From Leifsonia sp. Root4 (GTDB lineage Bacteria > Actinomycetota > Actinomycetes > Actinomycetales > Microbacteriaceae): DNA of 64,000 nt. The DNA lies in assembly GCF_001425085.1 (NCBI RefSeq), contig NZ_LMDN01000005.1, positions 124,001 to 188,000 on the forward strand, in the 5' to 3' direction. Positions 24,804-41,714 of the stretch are shown here, one piece after another (the stretch's first letter is position 1; each line of letters starts with the position of its first letter). The position numbers were made by a program, and so were the translations under genes. The notes below the pieces were generated by a model. That model was not told the DNA's origin. It searched no databases and was given only the letters and a program-made list of their open reading frames with translations.

Positions 24804-26444
24804 TCACTGCCGGGCAGACCGTCTGGCGGCGGCGATCATCACGCTGCCGAGTAGCAACAGGGCGAGGACGGCCCCCGCGAGGGGCGCCGGATCGCTGCCC
24901 GTGCTGGCCAGCGCGGTCGTGGCGGGCGTGGGCGACGTGGTCGGTCCCGCCGGGGAACCGGCCGGCGTGGGCGTCGTCGGCGTGACGGGCGGCACTGTCG
25001 TGGGCGGGGCGGTGGGCGGCGTGGTCGCCGGTGGGATCGTCTCCTCGGGAGTCGGAGTCGGAGTCGGAGTCGGAGTCGGAGTCGGAGTCGGCGTGACGGC
25101 CGCGCCCGCACTGTTCTGCAGGCTGACCTCGACGGTCGACCCGGCCGCGATCGTGAGCGTCGCCGATGCGCCCAGCACACTCACGTCGCTGCCGCCGAAG
25201 ATCGGGGCTCCCCAGACGACTCCGGCCTGCGCCGCCGGCTCGCGCTCGCTCAGCGTGACGACGGTTCCGTCCGGCAGTTCCGAGACTCCGGCGCGCCCGC
25301 CCGCCCGCACCGTCAGAGAGCCAGTCACGATCTCCCCGTCGAGCGTGTAGCGGTAGTCGACGATGTACCCCGTCGACGCGTCAACGGATGCCGCGGCGGC
25401 CCCGTTCACGGTCTTGCTCACGGTGAAGCCGCCCAGGTCGGGGATCGGCGTTCCTCCGCCGTCGCCGCCGGCCTTCACGAACTCGACCGGCCACGACTGG
25501 AGCTGCGCATCGTTCGCCGTGAGGCTGTTCTCGAAGACGTCACCGGACTTCGCGTCATCCGGAAGCGTCGTCGTGTAGCTGAACGCGTACATCCGCTCGG
25601 CGTCGAAGACGGGACTGTTCACGGTGAAGGTGAACGAGTTGTTGGCGGGGTCATCGATCAGCGTGTACCCGCCTGGACCGGGGGAGAGCTCGGTGTAGTG
25701 CGGGCTGTTCCACTCGGACGCGAGGATCCACGATGCCCGGAACGAGTCGGCATCGAAGCGCAGGCGTGGATCGTAGCTGTCGGTGAGCACGACGGGTTCG
25801 GTGCCGTCACCGCGCAGGTCCTCGGCCGGGATGAAGATCTGCCAGGTCAGGCTGACCCCATCGCTGTTCAACCAGCCCCATTTGACGGGCTCCGTCGGCG
25901 CCGTTCCCGGCTCGCCGACTACGATCCCGCCTCCGGGCACGCTGACCGGGATCGTCACCCCGGTTCCGGAGACGAAGGTGAGGCTGCCGGAGGAGTCCTC
26001 CTCTGATGACTGGGCGAAGAAGTACAACGAGCCGGCGACGTCGCGGTGGGTCTCCACGTAGTCGTTGAGCGTGCAGGTGAAGGAGTTCTGGCCGACGACG
26101 CAGCTGCCGACCGCGATCTCATCCTCGTCCAGCAGATCGAAGGTCGATTCGAAGCCGATCACCGGGCCGGGGAAGGCCAGGCTGAAGGTGTCGCCCCGCT
26201 GGGCGCCCGGCGGGGCGCTCCACTCGGCGTTCACGGTGAACTGCTCCCAGACCTTCAGGGCGACAGTCGTATCGTGACTCTCAATACTGACGCTGCTGAT
26301 CGCATCGAGCTCGGCGGCCTGGGCGCTGCCGGCGACGGCGATCGCGGGCACCAGGCCGATGAGCGCGGCGAGTGCAACGGACACGCGGGCGGAACCGGCG
26401 CGGCGGCGCCGGCCCGCGCTGGGGGTGGACGGGGACGGGAGCAT
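24804..26444 (-). CDS. LAXTG-type cell-surface protein with DUF5979-like domain
   Basis: 546 residues. N-terminal signal peptide (Arg-rich then VALAALIGLVPAIAVAGSAQA), adhesin-like beta domains resembling the N2/N3 fold of Gram-positive surface proteins (residues about 45-330), a DUF5979-like beta domain (FTVSKTVNGAAAASVDASTGYIVDYRY...), a (TP)n linker and a C-terminal sorting signal LASTG, hydrophobic helix and RRSARQ. LAxTG is the motif of class E sortases; no sortase gene is in the window. RBS AAGGAG at the ATG 26444. Probably wall-anchored; ligand unknown. Confidence 0.83.
   Translation of the reverse strand: MLPSPSTPSAGRRRRAGSARVSVALAALIGLVPAIAVAGSAQAAELDAISSVSIESHDTTVALKVWEQFTVNAEWSAPPGAQRGDTFSLAFPGPVIGFESTFDLLDEDEIAVGSCVVGQNSFTCTLNDYVETHRDVAGSLYFFAQSSEEDSSGSLTFVSGTGVTIPVSVPGGGIVVGEPGTAPTEPVKWGWLNSDGVSLTWQIFIPAEDLRGDGTEPVVLTDSYDPRLRFDADSFRASWILASEWNSPHYTELSPGPGGYTLIDDPANNSFTFTVNSPVFDAERMYAFSYTTTLPDDAKSGDVFENSLTANDAQLQSWPVEFVKAGGDGGGTPIPDLGGFTVSKTVNGAAAASVDASTGYIVDYRYTLDGEIVTGSLTVRAGGRAGVSELPDGTVVTLSEREPAAQAGVVWGAPIFGGSDVSVLGASATLTIAAGSTVEVSLQNSAGAAVTPTPTPTPTPTPTPTPEETIPPATTPPTAPPTTVPPVTPTTPTPAGSPAGPTTSPTPATTALASTGSDPAPLAGAVLALLLLGSVMIAAARRSARQ
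25051..25090. repeat. GTCGGA hexanucleotide tandem repeat inside the surface-protein gene
   Basis: The unit GTCGGA repeats 6.7 times without a mismatch and encodes the Thr-Pro linker. Changes in unit number keep the frame and would only change linker length. Confidence 0.9.
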
Positions 26445-26680
26445 CGGGTTCTCCTTTGACAAGGGACAAGTTGAATCGGGCGAGCTCGGCACCGGAACGG
26501 GGTAAGCGTCTCGGTGTCTTCGCTCTCGGTGTCTTCACTGTGGAGACGCGCCAACGAGTGCTTCATGACGCGACGTCGGAAGATCCGTTGCGCGCCGCAA
26601 CGCGTACGGCGGAGTTCTGGCGCAGCTGTGCGCGTTCCGGGAGCGCGCCCTGAGCCATGTCGTGCCGGGGAATGTCGGCG

Positions 26681-31767: not shown

Positions 31768-32247
31768 CTATCGCCGGGACGTGCCCAAGCGGCGACGCAG
31801 CAACGGCTCCAAGCGGAACGGGATCAGTTCGCCCATCGAGAGCGAGGTCTGGGTGCGCTTGACGCCGCGGCAGGCGAGGATCAGGGCGTCGATGCGGAAC
31901 AGGTCCTCAGCGTCGAGGCAGACGACGCGTACGAGCAGGTCGCTGCGGCCGCTCAGGCCGTGGGCCTGCACGACCTCCGGTACGGCGGCCAACTCCCGCA
32001 CAATCGACGAGACGCGTTTCTGCTTCACGTGCACCTCGATGAAGGCCGTCAGCGGGTAGCCGAGCGCCGCGCTGTTGATCCGGCGCTCGAAGGAATCGAA
32101 GAGCCCGGCCGACTCCAGTTTCGCCATTCTGGCTTGCACGGTGTTGCGGCTGAGCCCGAGCTGTTCGGCCAGTGCGACGGTCGTGGATCGCGGTTCGGCG
32201 GAGAGCGCCAGGAGGAGCTCGACATCGCTCGCGTCAAGAGTGTGCAT
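31768..32247 (-). CDS. Lrp/AsnC family transcriptional regulator
   Basis: 159 residues with an N-terminal winged helix-turn-helix (ELLLALSAEPRSTTVALAEQLGLSRNTVQARMAKLESAGL) and a C-terminal RAM/AsnC effector domain (TAFIEVHVKQKRVSSIVRELAAVPEVVQAHGLSGRSDLLVRVV). Divergent from the bkd operon, it is the likely BkdR-type activator or repressor responding to branched-chain amino or keto acids. ATG at 32247 is preferred; a TTG three codons earlier is possible. Confidence 0.88.
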   Translation of the reverse strand: MHTLDASDVELLLALSAEPRSTTVALAEQLGLSRNTVQARMAKLESAGLFDSFERRINSAALGYPLTAFIEVHVKQKRVSSIVRELAAVPEVVQAHGLSGRSDLLVRVVCLDAEDLFRIDALILACRGVKRTQTSLSMGELIPFRLEPLLRRRLGTSRR

Positions 32248-32276
32248 AATGCGCAAAAATAGCAGCGGCTGGCCGC

Positions 32277-32429: not shown

Positions 32430-33776
32430 GTGATGATCAAGACGCAGATACCGACCCCGATGCCAGGCCAGACGATGGCAGCCCCAAGCCCATCCGAAGC
32501 GGGCTCGTCCGAACCGGGCTCCCCGGCATCGAGCTCCCCGGCATCGAGCTCGCCGGAACAGGACGCGGCCACCCGGTCCGATACGGCGCCGGCGATCGCC
32601 GACGACGACACCGCCGCCCGACTTCTCACTGCCGCGGGCGAGCGAGTTCCCAATGCCGAGCTTGAGCCGTGGGCCAGCGAACTCGACGCAGAGGCCATCG
32701 GCGGGCTCTACCGCGACATGGTGGTCGTGCGCCGACTCGACGCGGAGGGCATCGCGCTGCAGCGTCAGGGCCAGCTCGGCCTGTGGCCGCCGCTGCTCGG
32801 CCAGGAGGCCGCCCAGATCGGCTCGGCCAGGGCACTGCGGGCAGACGACTTCGTCTTCTCCAGCTACCGCGAAATGGCCGTCGCCTGGGTGCGCGGCGCC
32901 CGCCCGGAGGGGCTCACCCGCGCGTGGCGGGGCATCTCGGCATCCGGATGGGACCCGTTCACCGTGAACATGGCCCCGATGCAGGTGATCATCGGTGCGC
33001 AGTCGCTGCACGCGACGGGCTACGCGCTCGGCATTCAGAACGACGGCGACGACGCCGTCGCCGTCGCCTACTTCGGCGACGGCGCGACGAGCGAGGGCGA
33101 TGTGAACGAGGCGATGGTGTTCGCCGCGAGCTTCCAGGCGCCGGTGATCTTCTTCTGCCAGAACAACCACTGGGCCATCTCTGAGCCCGTCGGTCTGCAG
33201 GCGCACCGGGCCATCTCCGACCGGGCCCCCGGCTTCGGGATCCCGAGCATGCGCGTGGACGGCAACGACGTGCTCGCGGTGTTCGCCGCCATGCGGAGCG
33301 CACTCGACCGCGCACGGAACGGAGGCGGCCCGACCTTCATCGAGGCCGTGACCTACCGCATGGGCCCGCACACGACCGCCGACGACCCCACCCGCTACCG
33401 CGACCCGGCCGAGCTGGAGCTCTGGGCCGGCCGCGACCCGATCCGCCGCGTCGAGGCACTGCTGCGCGAGATGGGAGCGTTCACGCCCGAGTTCGAGCAG
33501 CAGGTCGCGGATGCCGCTGACACCGCGGCCGCCGAGCTGCGCGCCGTCACCATCGCGCTGCCGGATCCCGCGCCGCTCAGCGTGTTCGACCACGTCTACG
33601 CCGAGCCGCACAGCGCCCTGGAGCGGGAGCGCGAGCAGTACCGGATCTACCTGGAGCAGTTCGAGCCGGCCGCGGGAGAAAGCACAGCTGGAGCCAGCAC
33701 ACCGGGAGCCAGCACGCCGGGAGCCAGCTCAGGCCCTGCAGAATCCACGAGCCCAGACAATGGAGGTGCACGATGA
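32430..33776 (+). CDS. bkdA: Branched-chain 2-oxoacid dehydrogenase E1 component, alpha subunit
   Basis: Thiamine-diphosphate-dependent decarboxylase subunit that works with E1 beta and E2. 448 residues; the ThDP-binding motif GDGATSEGDVNEAMVFAASFQAPVIFFCQNN is complete, and GQEAAQIGSARALRADDFVFSSYREM and GPHTTADDPTRYRDPAELELW are E1-alpha signatures. The first ~60 residues and last ~30 residues are low-complexity Ser/Pro/Ala with exact 15-base repeats (32520-32549; 33693-33722), not part of the fold. GTG ATG at the start; ATG at 32433 is the alternative. In an operon with the six genes that follow. Confidence 0.9.
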   Translation: MMIKTQIPTPMPGQTMAAPSPSEAGSSEPGSPASSSPASSSPEQDAATRSDTAPAIADDDTAARLLTAAGERVPNAELEPWASELDAEAIGGLYRDMVVVRRLDAEGIALQRQGQLGLWPPLLGQEAAQIGSARALRADDFVFSSYREMAVAWVRGARPEGLTRAWRGISASGWDPFTVNMAPMQVIIGAQSLHATGYALGIQNDGDDAVAVAYFGDGATSEGDVNEAMVFAASFQAPVIFFCQNNHWAISEPVGLQAHRAISDRAPGFGIPSMRVDGNDVLAVFAAMRSALDRARNGGGPTFIEAVTYRMGPHTTADDPTRYRDPAELELWAGRDPIRRVEALLREMGAFTPEFEQQVADAADTAAAELRAVTIALPDPAPLSVFDHVYAEPHSALEREREQYRIYLEQFEPAAGESTAGASTPGASTPGASSGPAESTSPDNGGAR

Positions 33777-34799
33777 CCGTGATGACACTCGGTGGCGCGA
33801 TCAACGCCGGACTGCGTGCCGCACTCGCCGGCGACGACAAGGTCATGCTGATGGGCGAGGACATCGGTGCGCTCGGCGGTGTCTACCGGATCACCGACAA
33901 ACTGCAGGCGGAATTCGGCCCGCGCCGCGTCGTCGACACCCCGCTGGCGGAAGCCGGCATCCTCGGCACCGCCGTCGGCCTCGCGTTCCGGGGCTACCGC
34001 CCGGTCGTCGAGATCCAGTTCGACGGCTTCATCTACCCGGCGTTCGACCAGATCGTGAGCCAGGTGTCGCGGATGCACGCACGCACGGAGGGCGCCGTGA
34101 CGCTGCCCATAACGATCCGGGTGCCCTTCGGAGGCGGTATCGGCTCCGCCGAGCACCACTCCGAGTCGCCGGAGGCGTACTTCGCGCACACACCCGGTCT
34201 GCGGGTCATCAGCCCGTCGACGCCCCAGGATGCGTTCACCATGATCCAGCAGGCGATCGCCAGCTCCGACCCCGTGCTGTTCTTCGAGCCGAAGCGGCGC
34301 TATCACGTGAAGGGTGAGGTCGACATCGATCGCCCGCTCGCCGACGCGGCACCGATGGGGGGGCGCCCACGTCGTCGTTCCCGGCACCGACGTCACGCTC
34401 GTCGCCTACGGGCCGCTCGTGGCCACGGCCAGAGACGCGGCCACCGCGGCGCTGGCCGAAGGCGTGTCGATCGAGGTCGTCGATCTGCGCTCGCTCGCCC
34501 CGCTCGACCTCGAGACCCTCGCGGCATCCGTGCAGAAGACGGGCCGTCTCGTCATCACCCACGAGGCGTCCGGCGCGGGCGGGCTCGGCGCGGAGGTCGC
34601 CGCGAGCATCACGGAGCGCTGCTTCGAGTATCTGGAGCACGCTCCCGTGCGGGTGACCGGATTCGGGGTTCCGTACCCGCCGGCCAAGCTCGAACGGCAC
34701 TATCTGCCGGACCTCGACCGCATCCTCGATGGCGTCGACCGCGCGCTCGGCCGCGCGGGCTCTGCAAACACCGTGCTCGACGCGGGGGTGACGCGATGA
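33773..34799 (+). pseudogene. bkdB: Branched-chain 2-oxoacid dehydrogenase E1 beta subunit, frameshifted at a G7 tract
   Basis: The E1-beta homologue is recognisable end to end but not in one frame. Codons 1-197 (MTVMTLGGAINAGLRAAL ... HVKGEVDIDRPLADAAPMG) are normal. At the run of seven G, 34357-34363, the frame changes. The remaining third (GAHVVVPGTDVTLVAYGPLVATARDAA ... GFGVPYPPAKLERHYLPDLDRI) continues one base out of phase to the TGA at 34797-34799. Removing one G restores the whole gene. Without that, the first frame stays open and runs into bkdC in phase. Real mutation, sequencing error or slippage cannot be told apart here. Overlaps bkdA by ATGA. Confidence 0.88.
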
Positions 34800-36259
34800 G
34801 TGAGATTCGTGCGTTCCGCTTGCCCGACCTCGGTGAGGGTCTGACCGAGTCGGAGGTCGTCAACTGGCGCGTCGCCGTCGGTGACACGGTCACGCTCAAC
34901 CAGATCATCGCCGAGGTGGAGACCGCCAAGGCCATCGTCGAGCTTCCGGCTCCCTACGCGGGCACGATCACGCGCATCTACGCCGAGCCTGGCGTCACCG
35001 TGAACGTCGGCGAGCCGCTGATCGACTTCGAGGTGCCGGATGCCGGCGGCAACGGCAGCAGCGATGCGCCGACGACACCGATCGCTCAGGCCGGAGGAGC
35101 GGAAGCCGTGACGCCGAACCTCGTCGGCTACGGTGCGCCGCCCGAGTCCGGTGACGGCCCCGCGCGCCGGGCCCGTCGTCGATTGGAGACGCAGGCGATC
35201 CCGATCGTGCGCGGCCAGGACGCCGGTGCGGACGTCGCGGGCGGAACCGGAACCGTTGCCACCGCCACGGGAACGGGGCCGGTGGGCACCACGACAGGCG
35301 GCATGGCGGCGCGAGCGCGCTCGACGCCGCCCGTGCGCAAGCTCGCACACGATCTCGGCATCGATCTCGAACAGCTGCATGGCAGCGGCACCGGGGGAGC
35401 CGTGACCCGCGACGACGTGGAGGCCGCCTTCGCCGAGCGCTTCGGCGGTGGCACCGCGACATCCGCCACTCAGGCATCCCCAGCGACCACAGCTCCCGCC
35501 GAGGCACCCAGCGCGGCGCAGGCGACGGGGCGCCCGAGTGTGCCGGCCCCCGACGAGGACGGCGTGACCCGCATCCCCATCCACGGTGTGCGCAAGCACA
35601 CGGCGGCCGCGATGGTGCAGAGCGCCTTCACCGCGCCGCACGTGAGCTGCTTCCTCACCGTCGACGTCGGGCGGAGCGTCGAGCTCCTCGCGGAACTGCG
35701 GGCAGAGCGCACGGCCGACGGCCCCAAGATCGGTATCCTCGCGCTCGTCGCCCAGGCCGTGTGCCTGGCTGCACGGCGCACGCCGGAGTTGAACGCGCAC
35801 TGGGACGAGGCCGCCCAGCAGATCGTGCAGTACCGCTCCGTGCACCTCGGCATCGCCGCGGCCACCCCGCGCGGACTGATGGTTCCGGTGATCGCCGACG
35901 CGCAGGCGATGGGACTCGCCGAGCTCGCCACCGCCATCGCCGGGCTCAGCGAGGCGGCCAGGGCGGGGACCACGACTCCGCAGGCCCTCCGCGGCGGCAC
36001 CTTCAGCATCAGCAACATCGGTGTCTTCGGTGTCGATGCCGGCACGCCGATCCTGAACCCGGGGGAGGCCGGCATCCTGGCCATCGGGGCCTTGCGCCGG
36101 GAGCCGCGCGAGTGGCAGGGCGAGATCGCGCTGCGCGATGTGCTCACGCTCAGCCTCAGCTTCGACCACCGGGTCGTCGACGGCGAGCAGGGGGCCCACT
36201 TCCTTCGCGATGTCGGAATGATCCTGAACAATCCCGGCCGTGTTCTGAGCATGCTGTGA
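34796..36259 (+). CDS. bkdC: Branched-chain 2-oxoacid dehydrogenase E2 (dihydrolipoyl acyltransferase)
   Basis: 487 residues. Domains in order: lipoyl domain (residues 1-78, lipoyl Lys45 in VETAKAIVE), linker, peripheral subunit-binding domain (TPPVRKLAHDLGIDLEQLHGSG..., residues about 178-215), a second linker rich in Ala/Thr, and the trimeric catalytic domain ending with FDHRVVDGEQGAHFL (catalytic His458 and the DG of the HxxxDG motif). Its ATG overlaps the E1-beta stop as ATGA. An E3 lipoamide dehydrogenase is not encoded here. Confidence 0.93.
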   Translation: MSEIRAFRLPDLGEGLTESEVVNWRVAVGDTVTLNQIIAEVETAKAIVELPAPYAGTITRIYAEPGVTVNVGEPLIDFEVPDAGGNGSSDAPTTPIAQAGGAEAVTPNLVGYGAPPESGDGPARRARRRLETQAIPIVRGQDAGADVAGGTGTVATATGTGPVGTTTGGMAARARSTPPVRKLAHDLGIDLEQLHGSGTGGAVTRDDVEAAFAERFGGGTATSATQASPATTAPAEAPSAAQATGRPSVPAPDEDGVTRIPIHGVRKHTAAAMVQSAFTAPHVSCFLTVDVGRSVELLAELRAERTADGPKIGILALVAQAVCLAARRTPELNAHWDEAAQQIVQYRSVHLGIAAATPRGLMVPVIADAQAMGLAELATAIAGLSEAARAGTTTPQALRGGTFSISNIGVFGVDAGTPILNPGEAGILAIGALRREPREWQGEIALRDVLTLSLSFDHRVVDGEQGAHFLRDVGMILNNPGRVLSML

Positions 36260-36332: not shown

Positions 36333-38015
36333 ATGAGCGCTCTGTTCGACACCGCCGGGGCCCGAGCGGGCACGACGACCCCATCGGGCACGACAACACT
36401 GACTGGCACGACAACACTGCGGAGCGCGATCGATCCGGATTCCGCGCCGTTCCTCGCCAACGACTCCGCGCAGCGCGGCCTCGTGGCCGAGCTCAACGAG
36501 CTGTTGGCGACGGCGGCCAGAGGCGGGCCGGAGCAATCGCGCCTCCGGCACACGGGGCGCGGCAAGCTGCTGCCCCGCGATCGCGTGGACCGCCTGCTCG
36601 ATCCGGGCAGTCCCTTCCTCGAGATCGCGCCGCTCGCCGCTCATGGGCTCTACGATTCGGAGGCGCCGGCCGCCGGGGTCATCGCCGGCATCGGGCTGGT
36701 GCACGGGCGACACGTCATGGTGATCTGCAACGACGCCACCGTGAAGGGCGGCACCTACTTCCCGCTGACGGTGAAGAAACACCTCCGTGCCCAGGAGATC
36801 GCCCTGGAGAATCGGATCCCGTGCATCGCGCTCGTCGATTCCGGTGGCGCCTACCTGCCGATGCAGGACGAGGTGTTCCCCGACCGTGAGCACTTCGGGC
36901 GGATCTTCTACAACCAGGCGCGGATGTCGGCGGCCCGCATCCCACAGATCGCGGCCGTGCTCGGCTCCTGCACAGCCGGCGGCGCCTACGTGCCCGCGAT
37001 GAGTGACGAGACGGTAATCGTGCGCGGACAGGGCACGATCTTCCTCGGCGGACCACCGCTGGTCAAGGCGGCCATCGGCGAGGTCGTCACGGCCGAGGAG
37101 CTCGGCGGCGGGGAACTGCACTCCCAGGTCTCCGGTGTCACCGACCACCTGGCCGAGAACGACGCACACGCCCTGGAGATCGTGCGGGACATCGTCGCAA
37201 CGCTCCCGCCGCCGGCCGCACCGGCCTGGGCCGTCGCGGAGAGCAGCGAGCCGCACGCGGTTCAGGGCGAGCTCTACGGCATCGTGCCGCTGGACGTGCA
37301 GGCCGACTACGACGTGCGCGAGGTGATCGCCCGCCTCGTCGACGACAGCGCCATGCACGAGTTCAAGCGGGAGTACGGCACGACACTCGTGACCGGCTTC
37401 GCGCACATCCACGGCCACCCGGTCGGCATCGTCGCCAACAATGGCGTGCTCTTCAGCGAGTCGGCCGAGAAGGGCGCGCACTTCATCGAACTCTGCGACC
37501 AGCGCGGCATCCCGCTGCTGTTCCTGCAGAACATCTCTGGCTTCATGGTCGGCCGCGAGGCAGAGGCCGGCGGCATCGCCAAACACGGCGCCAAGATGGT
37601 GACGGCCGTCGCGACGACGCGGGTGCCGAAGCTCACCGTCGTCATCGGCGGGTCATTCGGCGCCGGCAACTATTCGATGTGCGGTCGTGCATACTCGCCC
37701 CGCTTCCTCTGGATGTGGCCGGGTGCCCGCATCTCGGTGATGGGCGGGGAGCAGGCGGCCTCCGTTCTCGCCACCGTCAAGCGCGACCAGTACGAGGCGC
37801 GCGGCGAGGAGTGGGCGGCGCCGAACGAGGAGGCGTTCCGTGCCCCGATCAGGGACCGCTACGAGAGTCAGGGCAGCCCGTACTACTCGACGGCGCGGCT
37901 CTGGGACGACGGCGTGATCGACCCGGCCGACACCCGCAGGGTGCTCGGCCTCGCCCTCGACGTCTGCAGCAGGACCCCGCTGCCCGAGCCGGCCTTCGGC
38001 CTCTTCCGGATGTGA
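36333..38015 (+). CDS. Acyl-CoA carboxylase, carboxyltransferase (beta) subunit, methylcrotonyl-CoA type
   Basis: 560 residues of crotonase-superfamily carboxyltransferase: N-terminal acyl-CoA half with [43 protein letters not shown] and [22 protein letters not shown]-terminal half with [24 protein letters not shown]. These are diagnostic of AccD1/MccB-type methylcrotonyl-CoA carboxylase beta subunits. The first 30 residues are an extension made of three 18-base tandem repeats (GTTTP/GTTTL, 36366-36419). Next gene is the biotin-carrying partner, overlapping by one base. Confidence 0.92.
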
Positions 38016-40291
38016 TGCGCGCCATGCCAGCCCCCGAAATGACTGATCAACATCGCCCCTCGGCGTCGACGGCGCCCTTCGACCGGGTGCTCGTCGCGAA
38101 CCGCGGCGAGATCGCCTGCCGCATCATCCGGACGCTGCGCCGCCTCGGCATCGTCTCCATCGCCGTGTACAGCGACGCCGACCGGGATGCCAAGCACGTC
38201 GGCCTCGCCGACGTCGCCATGCGCATCGGTCCGGCCGCCGCGAGCGAGAGCTACCTCGATGTCGCCGCGGTCATGGCCGCCGCCGTCGCAAGCGGTGCGG
38301 ATGCCGTCCACCCCGGTTACGGCTTCCTCTCGGAGAGCCCGCTCCTGGCCGCCGCATGCGAGCAGGCCGGGATCGCCTTCGTCGGACCGAGTGAGAATGC
38401 ACTGAGCGTGATGGGCGACAAGATCCGCTCGAAGCGCCACGTCGCCGCGTACGGGGTACCGGTGACGCCCGGCAGCGAATCGAGCGGAAACGAGTCCGGC
38501 GCGGACAGCAGCGACGCCGCGTTGACGGCATCCGCGACCGCCATCGGCTATCCGGTGCTCGTCAAACCCTCCGCGGGCGGCGGGGGCAAGGGCATGCAGG
38601 TGGTGCGGAGCGCAGAGGAGCTACCGGCGGCGCTCGCCACGGCCAGGCGCGTCGCGCGTGCGGCCTTCGGCGACGACACGCTCTTCCTCGAGAAGTTGAT
38701 CGAGCGGCCCCGGCACATCGAGGTGCAGCTGCTGGCCGACCGCGCAGGCAACACCGTGCACCTGGGGGAGCGCGAGTGCTCACTGCAGCGCCGGCACCAG
38801 AAGGTGATCGAAGAGGCACCGTCGCCGCTGCTGGACGCCGGCACGCGGGCGCGCATCGGCGAGGCGGCGTGCGCCGTGGCCCGCAGCGTCGGCTACGAGG
38901 GGGCGGGAACCGTGGAGTTCCTCGTCTCGGATGCCGCCCCGGAGGAGTTCTTCTTCATGGAGATGAACACACGCCTCCAGGTAGAACACCCGGTGACGGA
39001 GCAGGTGACGGGCATCGACATCGTCGAGTGGCAGCTGCGCACGGCGGCGGGGGAGTTGCTGCCGTGGCGCCAGGACGAGATCGCGCTGACAGGGCACTCG
39101 GTCGAGGCCCGGATCTACGCCGAGGACCCTGCTCACGACTTCCTGCCCACCAGTGGACGGATCGCGGCGCTCGCCGAAGCGTCCGCGCCGTGGCTGCGTG
39201 TCGATAGCGCGATGGTGGCCGGTGGAGAGGTCGGCACCCACTACGACCCGATGCTCGGCAAAGTGATCGCCTGGGGTCCCGACCGGGCCAGCGCACTCGC
39301 CCGCCTCGACGCCGCACTCGCCGACACGGTGATCCTCGGGCTCGGCACCAACGTCGACTTCCTGCGTGGCCTGCTCAGCGATCCCGCGGTGCGGGCCGGG
39401 CAGCTGGACACTGGACTCATCGAGCGGCACCTCGCCGCCGAGGGTGCCGACGGGCAGCAAAGCGGCTCGACCGCTGGCAGCCCGGACACGGTCAGCCGTG
39501 CCGAGATGCTCGCCGTCGCGGCCGTCGTGCTCTGCCCGCCCAGCCCTGCTCCCGGCGCGGCCTCCGCGCTCTGGCGCGACGGCGCCGGATGGCGCTCGGG
39601 TGGCGCCACCGCGGCCCGCCCGATCAGCACCCGTGTACTTCCGGGTGGCGACGACTCGCCACCGTCCGGCTCAGACCAGTCCGGTGCGGCGGTTGATCTC
39701 AGTGCGCGCCGAGACGGCTGCGGGTTCACCGTGACGGAGACCACGCCGGGCGCGAACGGCTCCGACGAAAGCTCCGAGCACAGCGTGAGCGTGTCGGGCG
39801 ATGGGCCGGGTGGGCCGTTCGAGCCCAGTGGAATCCGGGTCGGCATCGCCGTGGACGGCGTGCAGCGCCGCTGGAGTTGGGCCCTCGATGGCGATGAACT
39901 CTGGCTCAGCGTCGCAGGGCAGGGCGCCCGATTCACCGTGCAGAGCAGGGAGGAGGCGCTCCAACAGGGGCTCGCCCGGATCCGCGCCGATCGTGCGCTC
40001 CTCGCCGGTGGTGTTGCCGCGAGCCCGGAGCTGCGCACCCCGATGCCGGGAACCGTGGTGGCGCTGCACGCGGCATCCGGCGACCGGGTCGCGATCGGCG
40101 ATGCGATCGGCACGGTCGAGGCGATGAAGATGGAACACCTGCTGACGGCGAGCGTCGCCGGCATCCTGCGGCTGCATGTGCGGCTCGGCGAGGCGCTGCG
40201 GCGCGAACAGCTCGTCGCATCGATCGATGCGGATGCCGCGGCGCCCGATGCGGGAAGCAGCGACGTAGCGCGTGAGGGGAATCGGCCATGA
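38015..40291 (+). CDS. Acyl-CoA carboxylase biotin carboxylase/biotin carrier (alpha) subunit
   Basis: 758 residues. Biotin carboxylase ATP-grasp: VLVANRGEIACRIIRTLRRLGI, DAVHPGYGFLSESPLLAAACEQAGI, YPVLVKPSAGGGGKGMQVV and EMNTRLQVEHPVTE. C-terminal biotinyl domain with GTVEAMKMEH, biotin on about Lys705. The region between (residues about 475-640) is variable and polar. ATG at 38015 overlaps the beta-subunit stop (TGATG); ATGs at 38024 and 38039 are alternatives. With the beta subunit it should carboxylate 3-methylcrotonyl-CoA in leucine breakdown. Confidence 0.93.
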   Translation: MRAMPAPEMTDQHRPSASTAPFDRVLVANRGEIACRIIRTLRRLGIVSIAVYSDADRDAKHVGLADVAMRIGPAAASESYLDVAAVMAAAVASGADAVHPGYGFLSESPLLAAACEQAGIAFVGPSENALSVMGDKIRSKRHVAAYGVPVTPGSESSGNESGADSSDAALTASATAIGYPVLVKPSAGGGGKGMQVVRSAEELPAALATARRVARAAFGDDTLFLEKLIERPRHIEVQLLADRAGNTVHLGERECSLQRRHQKVIEEAPSPLLDAGTRARIGEAACAVARSVGYEGAGTVEFLVSDAAPEEFFFMEMNTRLQVEHPVTEQVTGIDIVEWQLRTAAGELLPWRQDEIALTGHSVEARIYAEDPAHDFLPTSGRIAALAEASAPWLRVDSAMVAGGEVGTHYDPMLGKVIAWGPDRASALARLDAALADTVILGLGTNVDFLRGLLSDPAVRAGQLDTGLIERHLAAEGADGQQSGSTAGSPDTVSRAEMLAVAAVVLCPPSPAPGAASALWRDGAGWRSGGATAARPISTRVLPGGDDSPPSGSDQSGAAVDLSARRDGCGFTVTETTPGANGSDESSEHSVSVSGDGPGGPFEPSGIRVGIAVDGVQRRWSWALDGDELWLSVAGQGARFTVQSREEALQQGLARIRADRALLAGGVAASPELRTPMPGTVVALHAASGDRVAIGDAIGTVEAMKMEHLLTASVAGILRLHVRLGEALRREQLVASIDADAAAPDAGSSDVAREGNRP

Positions 40292-40854
40292 CAGACGACA
40301 TCGGGCAGACGGCCCAGACTCCACAGGCACAGACCCCGCCCACAGAGGCGCCGTTCACGTCCATCGTGCAGCGCGGTCTCTTCTACGAGGAGTTCGATCT
40401 CACCGCTCGCTACATGCACCGCCCCGGCCGCACCATCACCGAGGCCGACAACGTGCTGTTCAGCACCATGACGATGAACCCACAGTCGCTGCACCTCGAC
40501 GCCGCGTTCGCCGCCGGGCAGCCGTTCGGCCAGCGCCTGGTCAACTCGATGCTCACGCTGTCGACACTCGTCGGGGCCTCCGTCGCCCAACTCACCCAGG
40601 GCACGCTCGTCGCCAACCTCGGCTTCGGCGCGATCGCGTTCCCGCTGCCGCTCTTCCACGGCGACACGCTGTACTCGGAGACCGTCGTCAGCGCCAAACG
40701 CCTCTCGGCCTCGCGCCCCGGTCAGGGGATCGTCACGCTCGAGCACACCGGGCGCAACCAGCACGGTGACATCGTGGCGACGGCGAGCCGCACGACCCTC
40801 GTGTGGTGCATCGACTCCGCACCCGCCGGCGCAGACGACGCGAGAGACGTATGA
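40288..40854 (+). CDS. MaoC family dehydratase
   Basis: 188-residue hot-dog-fold hydratase/dehydratase. VQRGLFYEEFDLTARYMHRPGRTITEADNVLFSTMTMNPQSLHLD contains the conserved Asp/His hydratase site; GDTLYSETVVSAKRLSASRPGQGIVTLEHTGRNQ completes the fold. The same position in M. tuberculosis (Rv2499c, next to citE) is implicated in leucine catabolism. N-terminal 22 residues are Gln/Thr/Pro-rich. ATGA overlap with the carboxylase gene. Confidence 0.9.
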   Translation: MTDDIGQTAQTPQAQTPPTEAPFTSIVQRGLFYEEFDLTARYMHRPGRTITEADNVLFSTMTMNPQSLHLDAAFAAGQPFGQRLVNSMLTLSTLVGASVAQLTQGTLVANLGFGAIAFPLPLFHGDTLYSETVVSAKRLSASRPGQGIVTLEHTGRNQHGDIVATASRTTLVWCIDSAPAGADDARDV

Positions 40855-41714
40855 GCGCGGCAGCCGGCGTAGTGCGGTCCGGCGGCATCGACGTCGGCTC
40901 CACCGGCCCCGCGCTGCTGTTCTGCCCGGCCGATCGCCCCGACCGCTTCGGCAAGGCGGCCGAGCGGGCGGATGCCGTCATCCTCGACCTCGAAGACGCC
41001 GTCGACCCCGCTGCCCGCCCGGCCGCGCGGCAAGCACTTCTCGCGCAGCGACTCGATCCACGCCGCACCATGGTGCGGGTGAACCCGTTCGGCTCAAGCG
41101 ACCACGTCGCCGACGTCGAGGCCGCATTCAGCGCCGGTTACCGCACGCTCATGCTTGCCAAGACCGAGTCGGTCGCCGCGGTGCACTCCGTCAACGCGCT
41201 CGCCGCGGCATCCGGCGTCCGCGCGGGTATCGTCGCACTCTGCGAGACGGCGGCCGGAGTGCTGGCCGCGCCGCAGATCGCCGCAGAATCCGCCGTGGTC
41301 GCGCTGATGTGGGGAGCAGAGGACCTCGTGGCCTCGCTCGGGGGCAGCTCCAGTCGCTTCGACGACGGCCGCTATCGGGCCGTCGCGCTGCACGCCCGCT
41401 CCGCGGTGCTCCTGGCCGCCGGGGCGCACGGCACCGCCGCCATCGACACGGTGTACCTGGACATCGCCGATGAGGCAGGGCTGGCCGCGGAGGCGAGGGA
41501 TGCCGCCGCGTGCGGTTTCGCGGCTACGGCGTGCATCCATCCGAGCCAGGTCGCCGTCATCCGCGCCGCGTACCGCCCGGACGAGCGCGCAGTGCAGGCC
41601 GCCCGCGATCTACTGGCGGCCGCGGCCGGGCAACCGGGCGTCTTCCGCCACGATGGCCGCATGGTCGACGAGCCCGTGCTGCGCCACGCGCGGGCCCTGC
41701 TCGCCCGCGCCTGA
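40851..41714 (+). CDS. CitE-like CoA ester lyase (HpcH/HpaI aldolase family)
   Basis: 287-residue TIM-barrel lyase: LLFCPADRPDRFGKAAERADAVILDLEDAVDP contains the metal- and substrate-binding residues, followed by VRVNPFGSSDHVADVEAAFSAGYRTLMLAKTESV, GIVALCETAAGVLAAPQIA and CIHPSQVAVI. Related to Rv2498c of M. tuberculosis, a beta-hydroxyacyl-CoA lyase linked to leucine use. Last gene of the operon; ATGA overlap with maoC. Its last 105 bases are also read on the other strand. Confidence 0.9.
   Translation: MSAAAGVVRSGGIDVGSTGPALLFCPADRPDRFGKAAERADAVILDLEDAVDPAARPAARQALLAQRLDPRRTMVRVNPFGSSDHVADVEAAFSAGYRTLMLAKTESVAAVHSVNALAAASGVRAGIVALCETAAGVLAAPQIAAESAVVALMWGAEDLVASLGGSSSRFDDGRYRAVALHARSAVLLAAGAHGTAAIDTVYLDIADEAGLAAEARDAAACGFAATACIHPSQVAVIRAAYRPDERAVQAARDLLAAAAGQPGVFRHDGRMVDEPVLRHARALLARA

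What the first reader, a model, noticed from the sequence alone, without database searches (positions are those of the whole stretch)
34357..34363. bkdB broken by one extra G in a G7 run, opening a read-through into bkdC
The two frames of E1-beta join exactly if one of seven G is removed; both halves are otherwise intact and family-like. In the unshifted frame there is no stop for the remaining ~430 bases, so the frame enters bkdC in phase at its ATG (34796) and yields one 828-codon open frame: 197 residues of E1-beta, ~144 aberrant residues, then complete E2. The possibilities are a recent pseudogene, a homopolymer sequencing error, or slippage at G7 giving two product forms (truncated/fused and full length).
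Basis: partly seen in the sequence, partly recalled or inferred. Interest (0 to 1): 0.72.

Follow-up and report, generated by a model that had tools for sequence, protein, structure and literature searches.

The report
Recent one-base frameshift breaks bkdB
A gene for one part of an enzyme that burns branched-chain amino acids carries one extra G in a run of seven; this looks like an ordinary, very recent break (or a sequencing slip), in a bacterium whose repair machinery is expected to leave such slips uncorrected, and not a new kind of gene control.

Summary
Seven G lie at 34357-34363; E1-beta is split there between two frames, and the unshifted frame runs in phase into E2 as one 828-codon ORF. 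The break is private to this genome: all 84 other E1-beta loci examined (4 congeners, 80 loci of public genomes) are full length, with at most five G or C in a row at the site. In 328 kb compared with the nearest congener, bkdB is the only frame break found to separate recognised domains of one protein. Both halves evolved under strong constraint until now; the break can cover about 6% of the branch at most. The read-through is nothing special: that frame passes the E1-beta stop in 31 of 84 relatives. Programmed slippage is unlikely: the tract is not conserved, and a ribosomal -1 slip gives the third frame. The genome has no match to the MutS model and has NucS, which in mycobacteria does not correct indels; its genes avoid G/C tracts of six or more about tenfold. 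Best reading: a real, very recent slip, bearable because a second E1-alpha/E1-beta/E2 set is intact. A homopolymer error in the assembly cannot be excluded without reads. Ordinary.

The parts
31768..32256 (-). Lrp/AsnC-type regulator, divergent from the bkd operon
   Evidence: Pfam AsnC_trans_reg, HTH_24, HTH_AsnC-type; 94-97% aa to G001
32430..33776 (+). bkdA, E1-alpha subunit (448 aa)
   Evidence: Pfam E1_dh; NCBIfam TIGR03181 over its cut-off
33773..34363 (+). bkdB part 1: E1-beta residues 1-197, with the Transket_pyr domain
   Evidence: Pfam Transket_pyr, residues 6-177 of the 828-aa ORF; 99% aa to G001
34357..34363 (+). seven-G tract with the extra base; lies between the two E1-beta domains
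   Evidence: sequence; alignment with 4 congeners; whole-genome list of G7 tracts
34365..34799 (+). bkdB part 2: E1-beta C-terminal (Transketolase_C) domain, in the other frame
   Evidence: Pfam Transketolase_C; 94% aa to G001
33773..36259 (+). 828-codon fused open frame: E1-beta 1-197, 144 out-of-frame residues, whole E2
34784..34791 (+). GGGGGTGA, Shine-Dalgarno-like, so E2 can probably start on its own
   Evidence: sequence; GAGGTGA or GGAGGTG at the same place in G001-G003, a plain G run in G004; the likeness to a Shine-Dalgarno site is my reading
34796..36259 (+). bkdC, E2 acyltransferase (487 aa), intact
   Evidence: Pfam Biotin_lipoyl, E3_binding, 2-oxoacid_dh
36333..38015 (+). acyl-CoA carboxylase carboxyltransferase subunit
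   Evidence: Pfam Carboxyl_trans
38012..40291 (+). acyl-CoA carboxylase biotin carboxylase / carrier subunit
   Evidence: Pfam Biotin_carb_N, CPSase_L_D2, Biotin_carb_C, Biotin_lipoyl
40288..40854 (+). MaoC-type hydratase
   Evidence: Pfam MaoC_dehydratas
40803..41714 (+). HpcH/HpaI-type acyl-CoA lyase
   Evidence: Pfam HpcH_HpaI

Best explanation
bkdB carries a real, very recent one-base expansion of a G tract. A change at a glycine third position lengthened a short interrupted run into a slip-prone G tract, and replication slippage then added a base. The organism shows no MutS and keeps NucS, so such loops are probably not corrected. The strain as sequenced makes no normal E1-beta from this locus: ribosomes either make a useless E1-beta fragment fused to E2 or start E2 afresh. 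The branched-chain 2-oxo acid dehydrogenase encoded here is therefore off. A second intact E1-alpha/E1-beta/E2 set elsewhere, and AceE for pyruvate, make the loss bearable. Shown: tract, break, absence in relatives, constraint on both halves, second set, AceE and NucS present, MutS model without a match. Inferred: slippage as the cause, the order of the two changes, lack of repair, enzyme off, compensation by the second set.
For: One extra base against four congeners, none with more than four G or C in a row there. 84 of 84 other loci full length, longest run five. In 328 kb against G001, 21 other ORFs were flagged as possible breaks in one genome or the other: in 17 the best Pfam stretch begins after the shift, 4 have no family, of which 2 overlap coding-like ORFs on the opposite strand. 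Of 21 G/C runs of six or more there, 14 show no net indel against G001, 1 a multiple of three, 3 have no comparable stretch and 3 are +1: bkdB, a C9 tract between two genes, and one outside called genes, so no general homopolymer overcalling is seen. dN/dS 0.012 (N part) and 0.118 (C part, mostly its variable tail) against G001; 3 core changes against about 123 expected under neutrality on the branch, upper bound 6% of its length. mutS1 model: 0 of 5 genomes; NucS_C 5 of 5. Coding G/C runs of six or more: 12 against a mean of 121 in synonymous shuffles. NucS corrects substitutions but not frameshifts in mycobacteria (passages of PMC10159617, and PMC9346131). Second set intact at G000:C4; AceE 5 of 5.
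Against: No reads were available, and one genome per species is held, so the extra G could be an error or a culture mutation. Full constraint with no decay is what an error would show too. The GeneTack survey expected BLAST-confirmed singleton frame breaks to be sequencing errors rather than real indels (passage of PMC3711429). NucS specificity was measured in mycobacteria, not in this family. Two flagged ORFs without a Pfam family stay undecided.
Confidence: 0.6

Rival explanations
1. Sequencing or assembly error: the strain really has an intact bkdB, and the extra G is a homopolymer miscall.
For: Only a homopolymer differs; both halves are fully constrained with no decay; all 84 relatives examined are intact; singleton breaks with BLAST support were expected to be errors in PMC3711429 (passage).
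Against: No other break separating recognised domains was found in 328 kb, and 14 of 21 long G/C runs agree with a separate congener's genome. One isolated miscall would still fit.
Confidence: 0.32
2. Phase variation: the tract gains and loses one G reversibly, so bkdB is an on/off switch within the population, as reported for the 7C tract of glpK in M. tuberculosis. (Overlaps with the best explanation: the break would be real but reversible.)
For: Same tract length and base class, metabolic gene, actinobacterium with NucS and no MutS match; glpK precedent (passages of PMC9765434, and PMC10159617). Very recent origin fits.
Against: The tract is absent from all 84 relatives examined, so nothing shows that it is kept; long G/C tracts are rare in coding sequence here. 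No second isolate to compare.
Confidence: 0.08
3. Programmed or tolerated recoding at the tract: +1 ribosomal shift or transcript slippage yields some full-length E1-beta besides the fused form.
For: Both frames are open around the tract; a run of seven G is named in a review as a site of very low-level compensatory frameshifting in a viral gene (passage of PMC5009743).
Against: Site not conserved; a ribosomal -1 slip gives the third frame with a stop after 97 codons; the bacterial transcript slippage named in the passages seen of that review is on runs of nine A or T; the read-through is open by chance in 31 of 84 relatives.
Confidence: 0.03

Closest known systems
glpK 7C tract of Mycobacterium tuberculosis (reversible homopolymer frameshift)
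   Same: Seven-base G/C tract, one-base change breaks a metabolic gene, actinobacterium with NucS instead of MutS (papers: passages only; this genome)
   Different: There the seven-base tract is the in-frame state, is maintained, and reversion is reported; here the seven-base tract is the broken state, is private to one genome, and nothing is known about reversion
Branched-chain 2-oxo acid dehydrogenase E1-beta (2-oxoisovalerate dehydrogenase beta, 1qs0, 2bp7, 1dtw)
   Same: Both domains present and family-like; the five best solved matches of the C part are such beta subunits
   Different: Split between two frames
BCKD gene cluster of Micrococcus luteus (Mlut_06800-06820)
   Same: A BCKD complex whose loss phenotype is known: no growth on leucine, fewer branched fatty acids (passages of PMC5857589, abstract included)
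   Different: Intact there; orthology with this locus was not tested; this genome has a second E1/E2 set
Singleton frameshift genes in the GeneTack survey
   Same: A frame break in one genome with intact homologues elsewhere (passages of PMC3711429)
   Different: Here bounded in age by substitution counts and compared with the rest of the contig

Membership tests
BCKDH E1-beta (functional gene) | Transket_pyr and Transketolase_C in one reading frame | tested here: not met
   Transketolase_C only in the other frame
BCKDH E1-beta (functional gene) | beside E1-alpha and E2 genes | tested here: met
BCKDH E1-beta (functional gene) | acts on branched-chain 2-oxo acids | not testable with these tools
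   read from neighbours, AceE and solved matches only; NCBIfam names the E1-alpha a pyruvate dehydrogenase subunit
Young pseudogene / recent indel allele | break absent from relatives | tested here: met
   84 of 84 full length
Young pseudogene / recent indel allele | no decay beyond the break | tested here: met
   3 core replacements; upper bound 6% of the branch
Young pseudogene / recent indel allele | break present in the living strain | not testable with these tools
   no reads, one genome per species
Slipped-strand phase-variable gene | tract kept in relatives | tested here: not met
   at most 5 G or C in a row at the site in 84 loci
Slipped-strand phase-variable gene | tract length varies within the population | not testable with these tools
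   no second isolate or reads
Programmed frameshift / transcript slippage | conserved shift site | tested here: not met
Programmed frameshift / transcript slippage | a -1 slip restores the downstream frame | tested here: not met
   -1 gives 97 codons of the third frame; +1 is needed

The most novel reading that the evidence does not exclude
The G tract in bkdB is a newly born, reversible on/off switch for branched-chain amino acid breakdown in an actinobacterium that shows no MutS: tract-length mixtures in a culture would set how many cells make this dehydrogenase.
Probability: 0.07. Interest if true: 0.5.

Novelty: new member of a known kind. Interest (0 to 1): 0.18.

Why it matters
By itself this is one broken metabolic gene, or one doubtful base, in one genome. 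The context has more general use: in this genus, with NucS and no match to the MutS model in 5 of 5 genomes, coding G/C tracts of six or more are about tenfold (this genome) and sevenfold (G001) rarer than synonymous shuffles predict. Of the 12 such tracts in called genes of the sampled stretches of this genome, none but bkdB's was flagged as a frame-changing indel against G001. That fits a direct cost of uncorrected slippage, which the papers seen describe for mycobacteria, and it can be tested in other actinobacterial families.

Tried and rejected
Conserved recoding site: rejected, none of 84 relatives has the tract. Selected read-through fusion: rejected, the frame is open past the stop in 31 of 84 relatives; three of four congeners have a stop in that frame at the same place, where the window has a synonymous difference. 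Old pseudogene: rejected by the lack of replacements. Bad assembly in general: not supported. Separate start for the C-terminal half: the earliest start of the ORF listed in that frame, GTG 34314, has no spaced Shine-Dalgarno-like site by eye; not tested further. Intolerable loss: not supported, a second E1-alpha/E1-beta/E2 set and AceE are present, but which set does which job was not tested. Genus name: not established; the best named relative is Leifsonia poae at 82%, and near records may be left out there. Structure prediction was not run (the Pfam split already answers the domain question). MutL was not searched.

The genes are mechanically chosen, non-overlapping, coding-like ORFs, and the fused 828-codon frame is one of them; the shuffle control keeps protein and codon usage but not codon-pair context, and no genome with MutS was run as a comparison. 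The neutral-age bound leaves out the tail of the C part: 8 differences are listed for the C part, 7 of them in the tail, which also varies in the congeners.

Full report
What is there. The window holds seven G at 34357-34363. The E1-beta frame that begins at 33773 passes through them and goes on without a stop to 36259, 828 codons. Pfam sees Transket_pyr at residues 6-177, then Biotin_lipoyl, E3_binding and 2-oxoacid_dh of E2; Transketolase_C appears only in the neighbouring frame, 34314-34799. The two E1-beta pieces match the nearest congener G001 at 99% and 94%. The break falls between the two domains.

Surroundings. Upstream are a divergent Lrp/AsnC-type regulator and E1-alpha; downstream are E2, a two-subunit biotin-dependent acyl-CoA carboxylase, a MaoC-type hydratase and an HpcH/HpaI-type lyase. 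From general knowledge of such clusters I read this as a leucine-type branched-chain breakdown operon. NCBIfam calls the E1-alpha a pyruvate dehydrogenase alpha subunit (TIGR03181, over cut-off), but all five genomes held for the genus have AceE, and the five best solved matches of the C part are 2-oxoisovalerate (branched-chain) dehydrogenase beta subunits. The substrate itself was not tested.

Is it private? Searching with the N part in the 5 genomes held for the genus gave an orthologue in each. Aligned over the site, the window alone has an extra base; in the four congeners the G run is interrupted and in frame. In 84 other loci (4 congeners and 80 from the public genome scan; the window's own locus L001 left out) E1-beta is 335-348 aa, and the longest G or C run in the 63 bases around the site is 2 to 5.

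Read-through. In the frame that one added base would open, 31 of 84 relatives run past the E1-beta stop; among the four congeners only G003 does. The open frame is thus common in high-G+C genes, and its entry into bkdC in phase follows from the ATGA overlap. bkdC keeps a GGGGGTGA in front of its ATG, so it can probably start independently.

Error or mutation? I compared 328 kb of this genome (contigs C5 and C6) with the matching stretches of G001. Of 332 G001 ORFs used as queries 286 had a hit, and 260 gave full-length matches (over 90% coverage, over 60% identity). The scan listed 14 rows of possible breaks in that direction and 10 in the other. bkdB is in both lists; the others are 21 ORFs. 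In 17 of the 21 the best-scoring Pfam stretch begins after the shift, so the shift lies in an upstream extension of the ORF (RecA, ClpP, exonuclease VII large subunit, FTR1 and LemA are among them). Four have no Pfam family: two overlap coding-like ORFs on the opposite strand, one has a cluster of indels at residues 50-69 of 580, and one is a 121-aa ORF with a one-base difference in a C run; these last two stay undecided. Of 21 G/C runs of six or more, 14 have no net indel against G001, 1 a multiple of three, 3 no comparable stretch, 3 are +1. In the whole genome there are 20 overlapping seven-G matches, which I count as 15 separate tracts. Ten of the 15 lie outside coding-like ORFs; five lie inside one: bkdB, a 782-aa ORF that runs through its tract, and three near the early end of an ORF counted from its earliest start. 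This speaks against general homopolymer overcalling, but one miscall cannot be excluded.

Age. Against G001, dS is 0.39 (N part) and 0.30 (C part), with 2 replacements in the N part and 8 listed differences in the C part, 7 of them in its variable tail. Without the tail, 3 replacements stand against about 123 expected if the gene had been neutral on its own branch; the 95% upper bound is 6% of the branch. If the break is real it is very young.

Why there? The mutS1 model has no match in 5 of 5 genomes of the genus, while it rings in 11 of 14 control genomes; NucS_C is in 5 of 5. Papers on mycobacteria state that the NucS system corrects substitutions but not frameshifts or indels, and that homopolymer frameshifts are common there (passages of PMC10159617; PMC9346131). 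In 244 called genes of this genome, G/C runs of six or more number 12 against a mean of 121 in 100 synonymous shuffles (lowest 100), and runs of seven or more 2 against 31. A second pass with 60 shuffles gave 11 against 123 for 242 genes of this genome, and 18 against 119 for 260 genes of G001. Such tracts are therefore avoided, and the bkdB tract is an exception. The likely history is a glycine third-position change that made a longer G run, then one slip. That order is inferred.

Consequence. Unless the ribosome shifts +1 or the transcript lacks one G, no normal E1-beta is made; a -1 shift ends after 97 codons. A second E1-alpha/E1-beta/E2 set at G000:C4 has its Pfam domains, with both E1-beta domains in one frame. 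In Micrococcus luteus, deletion of the BCKD complex stops growth on leucine and lowers branched fatty acids (passages of PMC5857589). Whether the second set here covers either job is unknown.

Compared with what is known. Reversible one-base change in a 7C tract of glpK in M. tuberculosis is the nearest described case (passages of PMC9765434). It may work alike, but membership fails on the one point that could be tested, maintenance of the tract. The GeneTack survey files such singletons as recent indels or errors (passages of PMC3711429). Two paper searches that could have shown a broken bkd gene in this setting (listings only, 10 of 12 and 8 of 349 papers listed) listed no title on it; that is not proof that none exists.

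Verdict. Observation confirmed; a young frameshift allele (0.6) or an error (0.32); reversible phase variation (0.08) overlaps with the first, and recoding stands at 0.03. Interest is low.

Noticed in passing
G000:C6:32609-32617 (L148:2010-2018): A nine-C tract, one base longer than in G001, between a pfkB-type kinase gene and the domain of a family-3 solute-binding-protein gene; a possible slip-prone site in front of a gene.
   Followed up: partly
G000 contigs C5 and C6; G001 counterparts: Coding G/C runs of six or more are about ten times rarer than in synonymous shuffles in this genome and about seven times in G001, in a genus with NucS and no match to the MutS model.
   Followed up: partly
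G002:C51:4484-4508: A run of 25 G in a 140-contig draft of a congener; possibly a poly-G sequencing artefact.
   Followed up: no
L136 (G004:C1:1450000-1468000): G004 has a third E1-alpha/E1-beta/E2 set, E1-beta N part 60% identical, with no counterpart in the other four genomes in the search.
   Followed up: no
window 24804-26492 (-): A 562-aa ORF with DUF5979 and Big_8 domains that has no match in the G001 stretch compared.
   Followed up: no
L095: A record titled Sporosarcina beigongshangi carries an E1-beta 72% identical to this one, odd for what I recall as a Bacillota genus; perhaps a mislabel or contamination.
   Followed up: no
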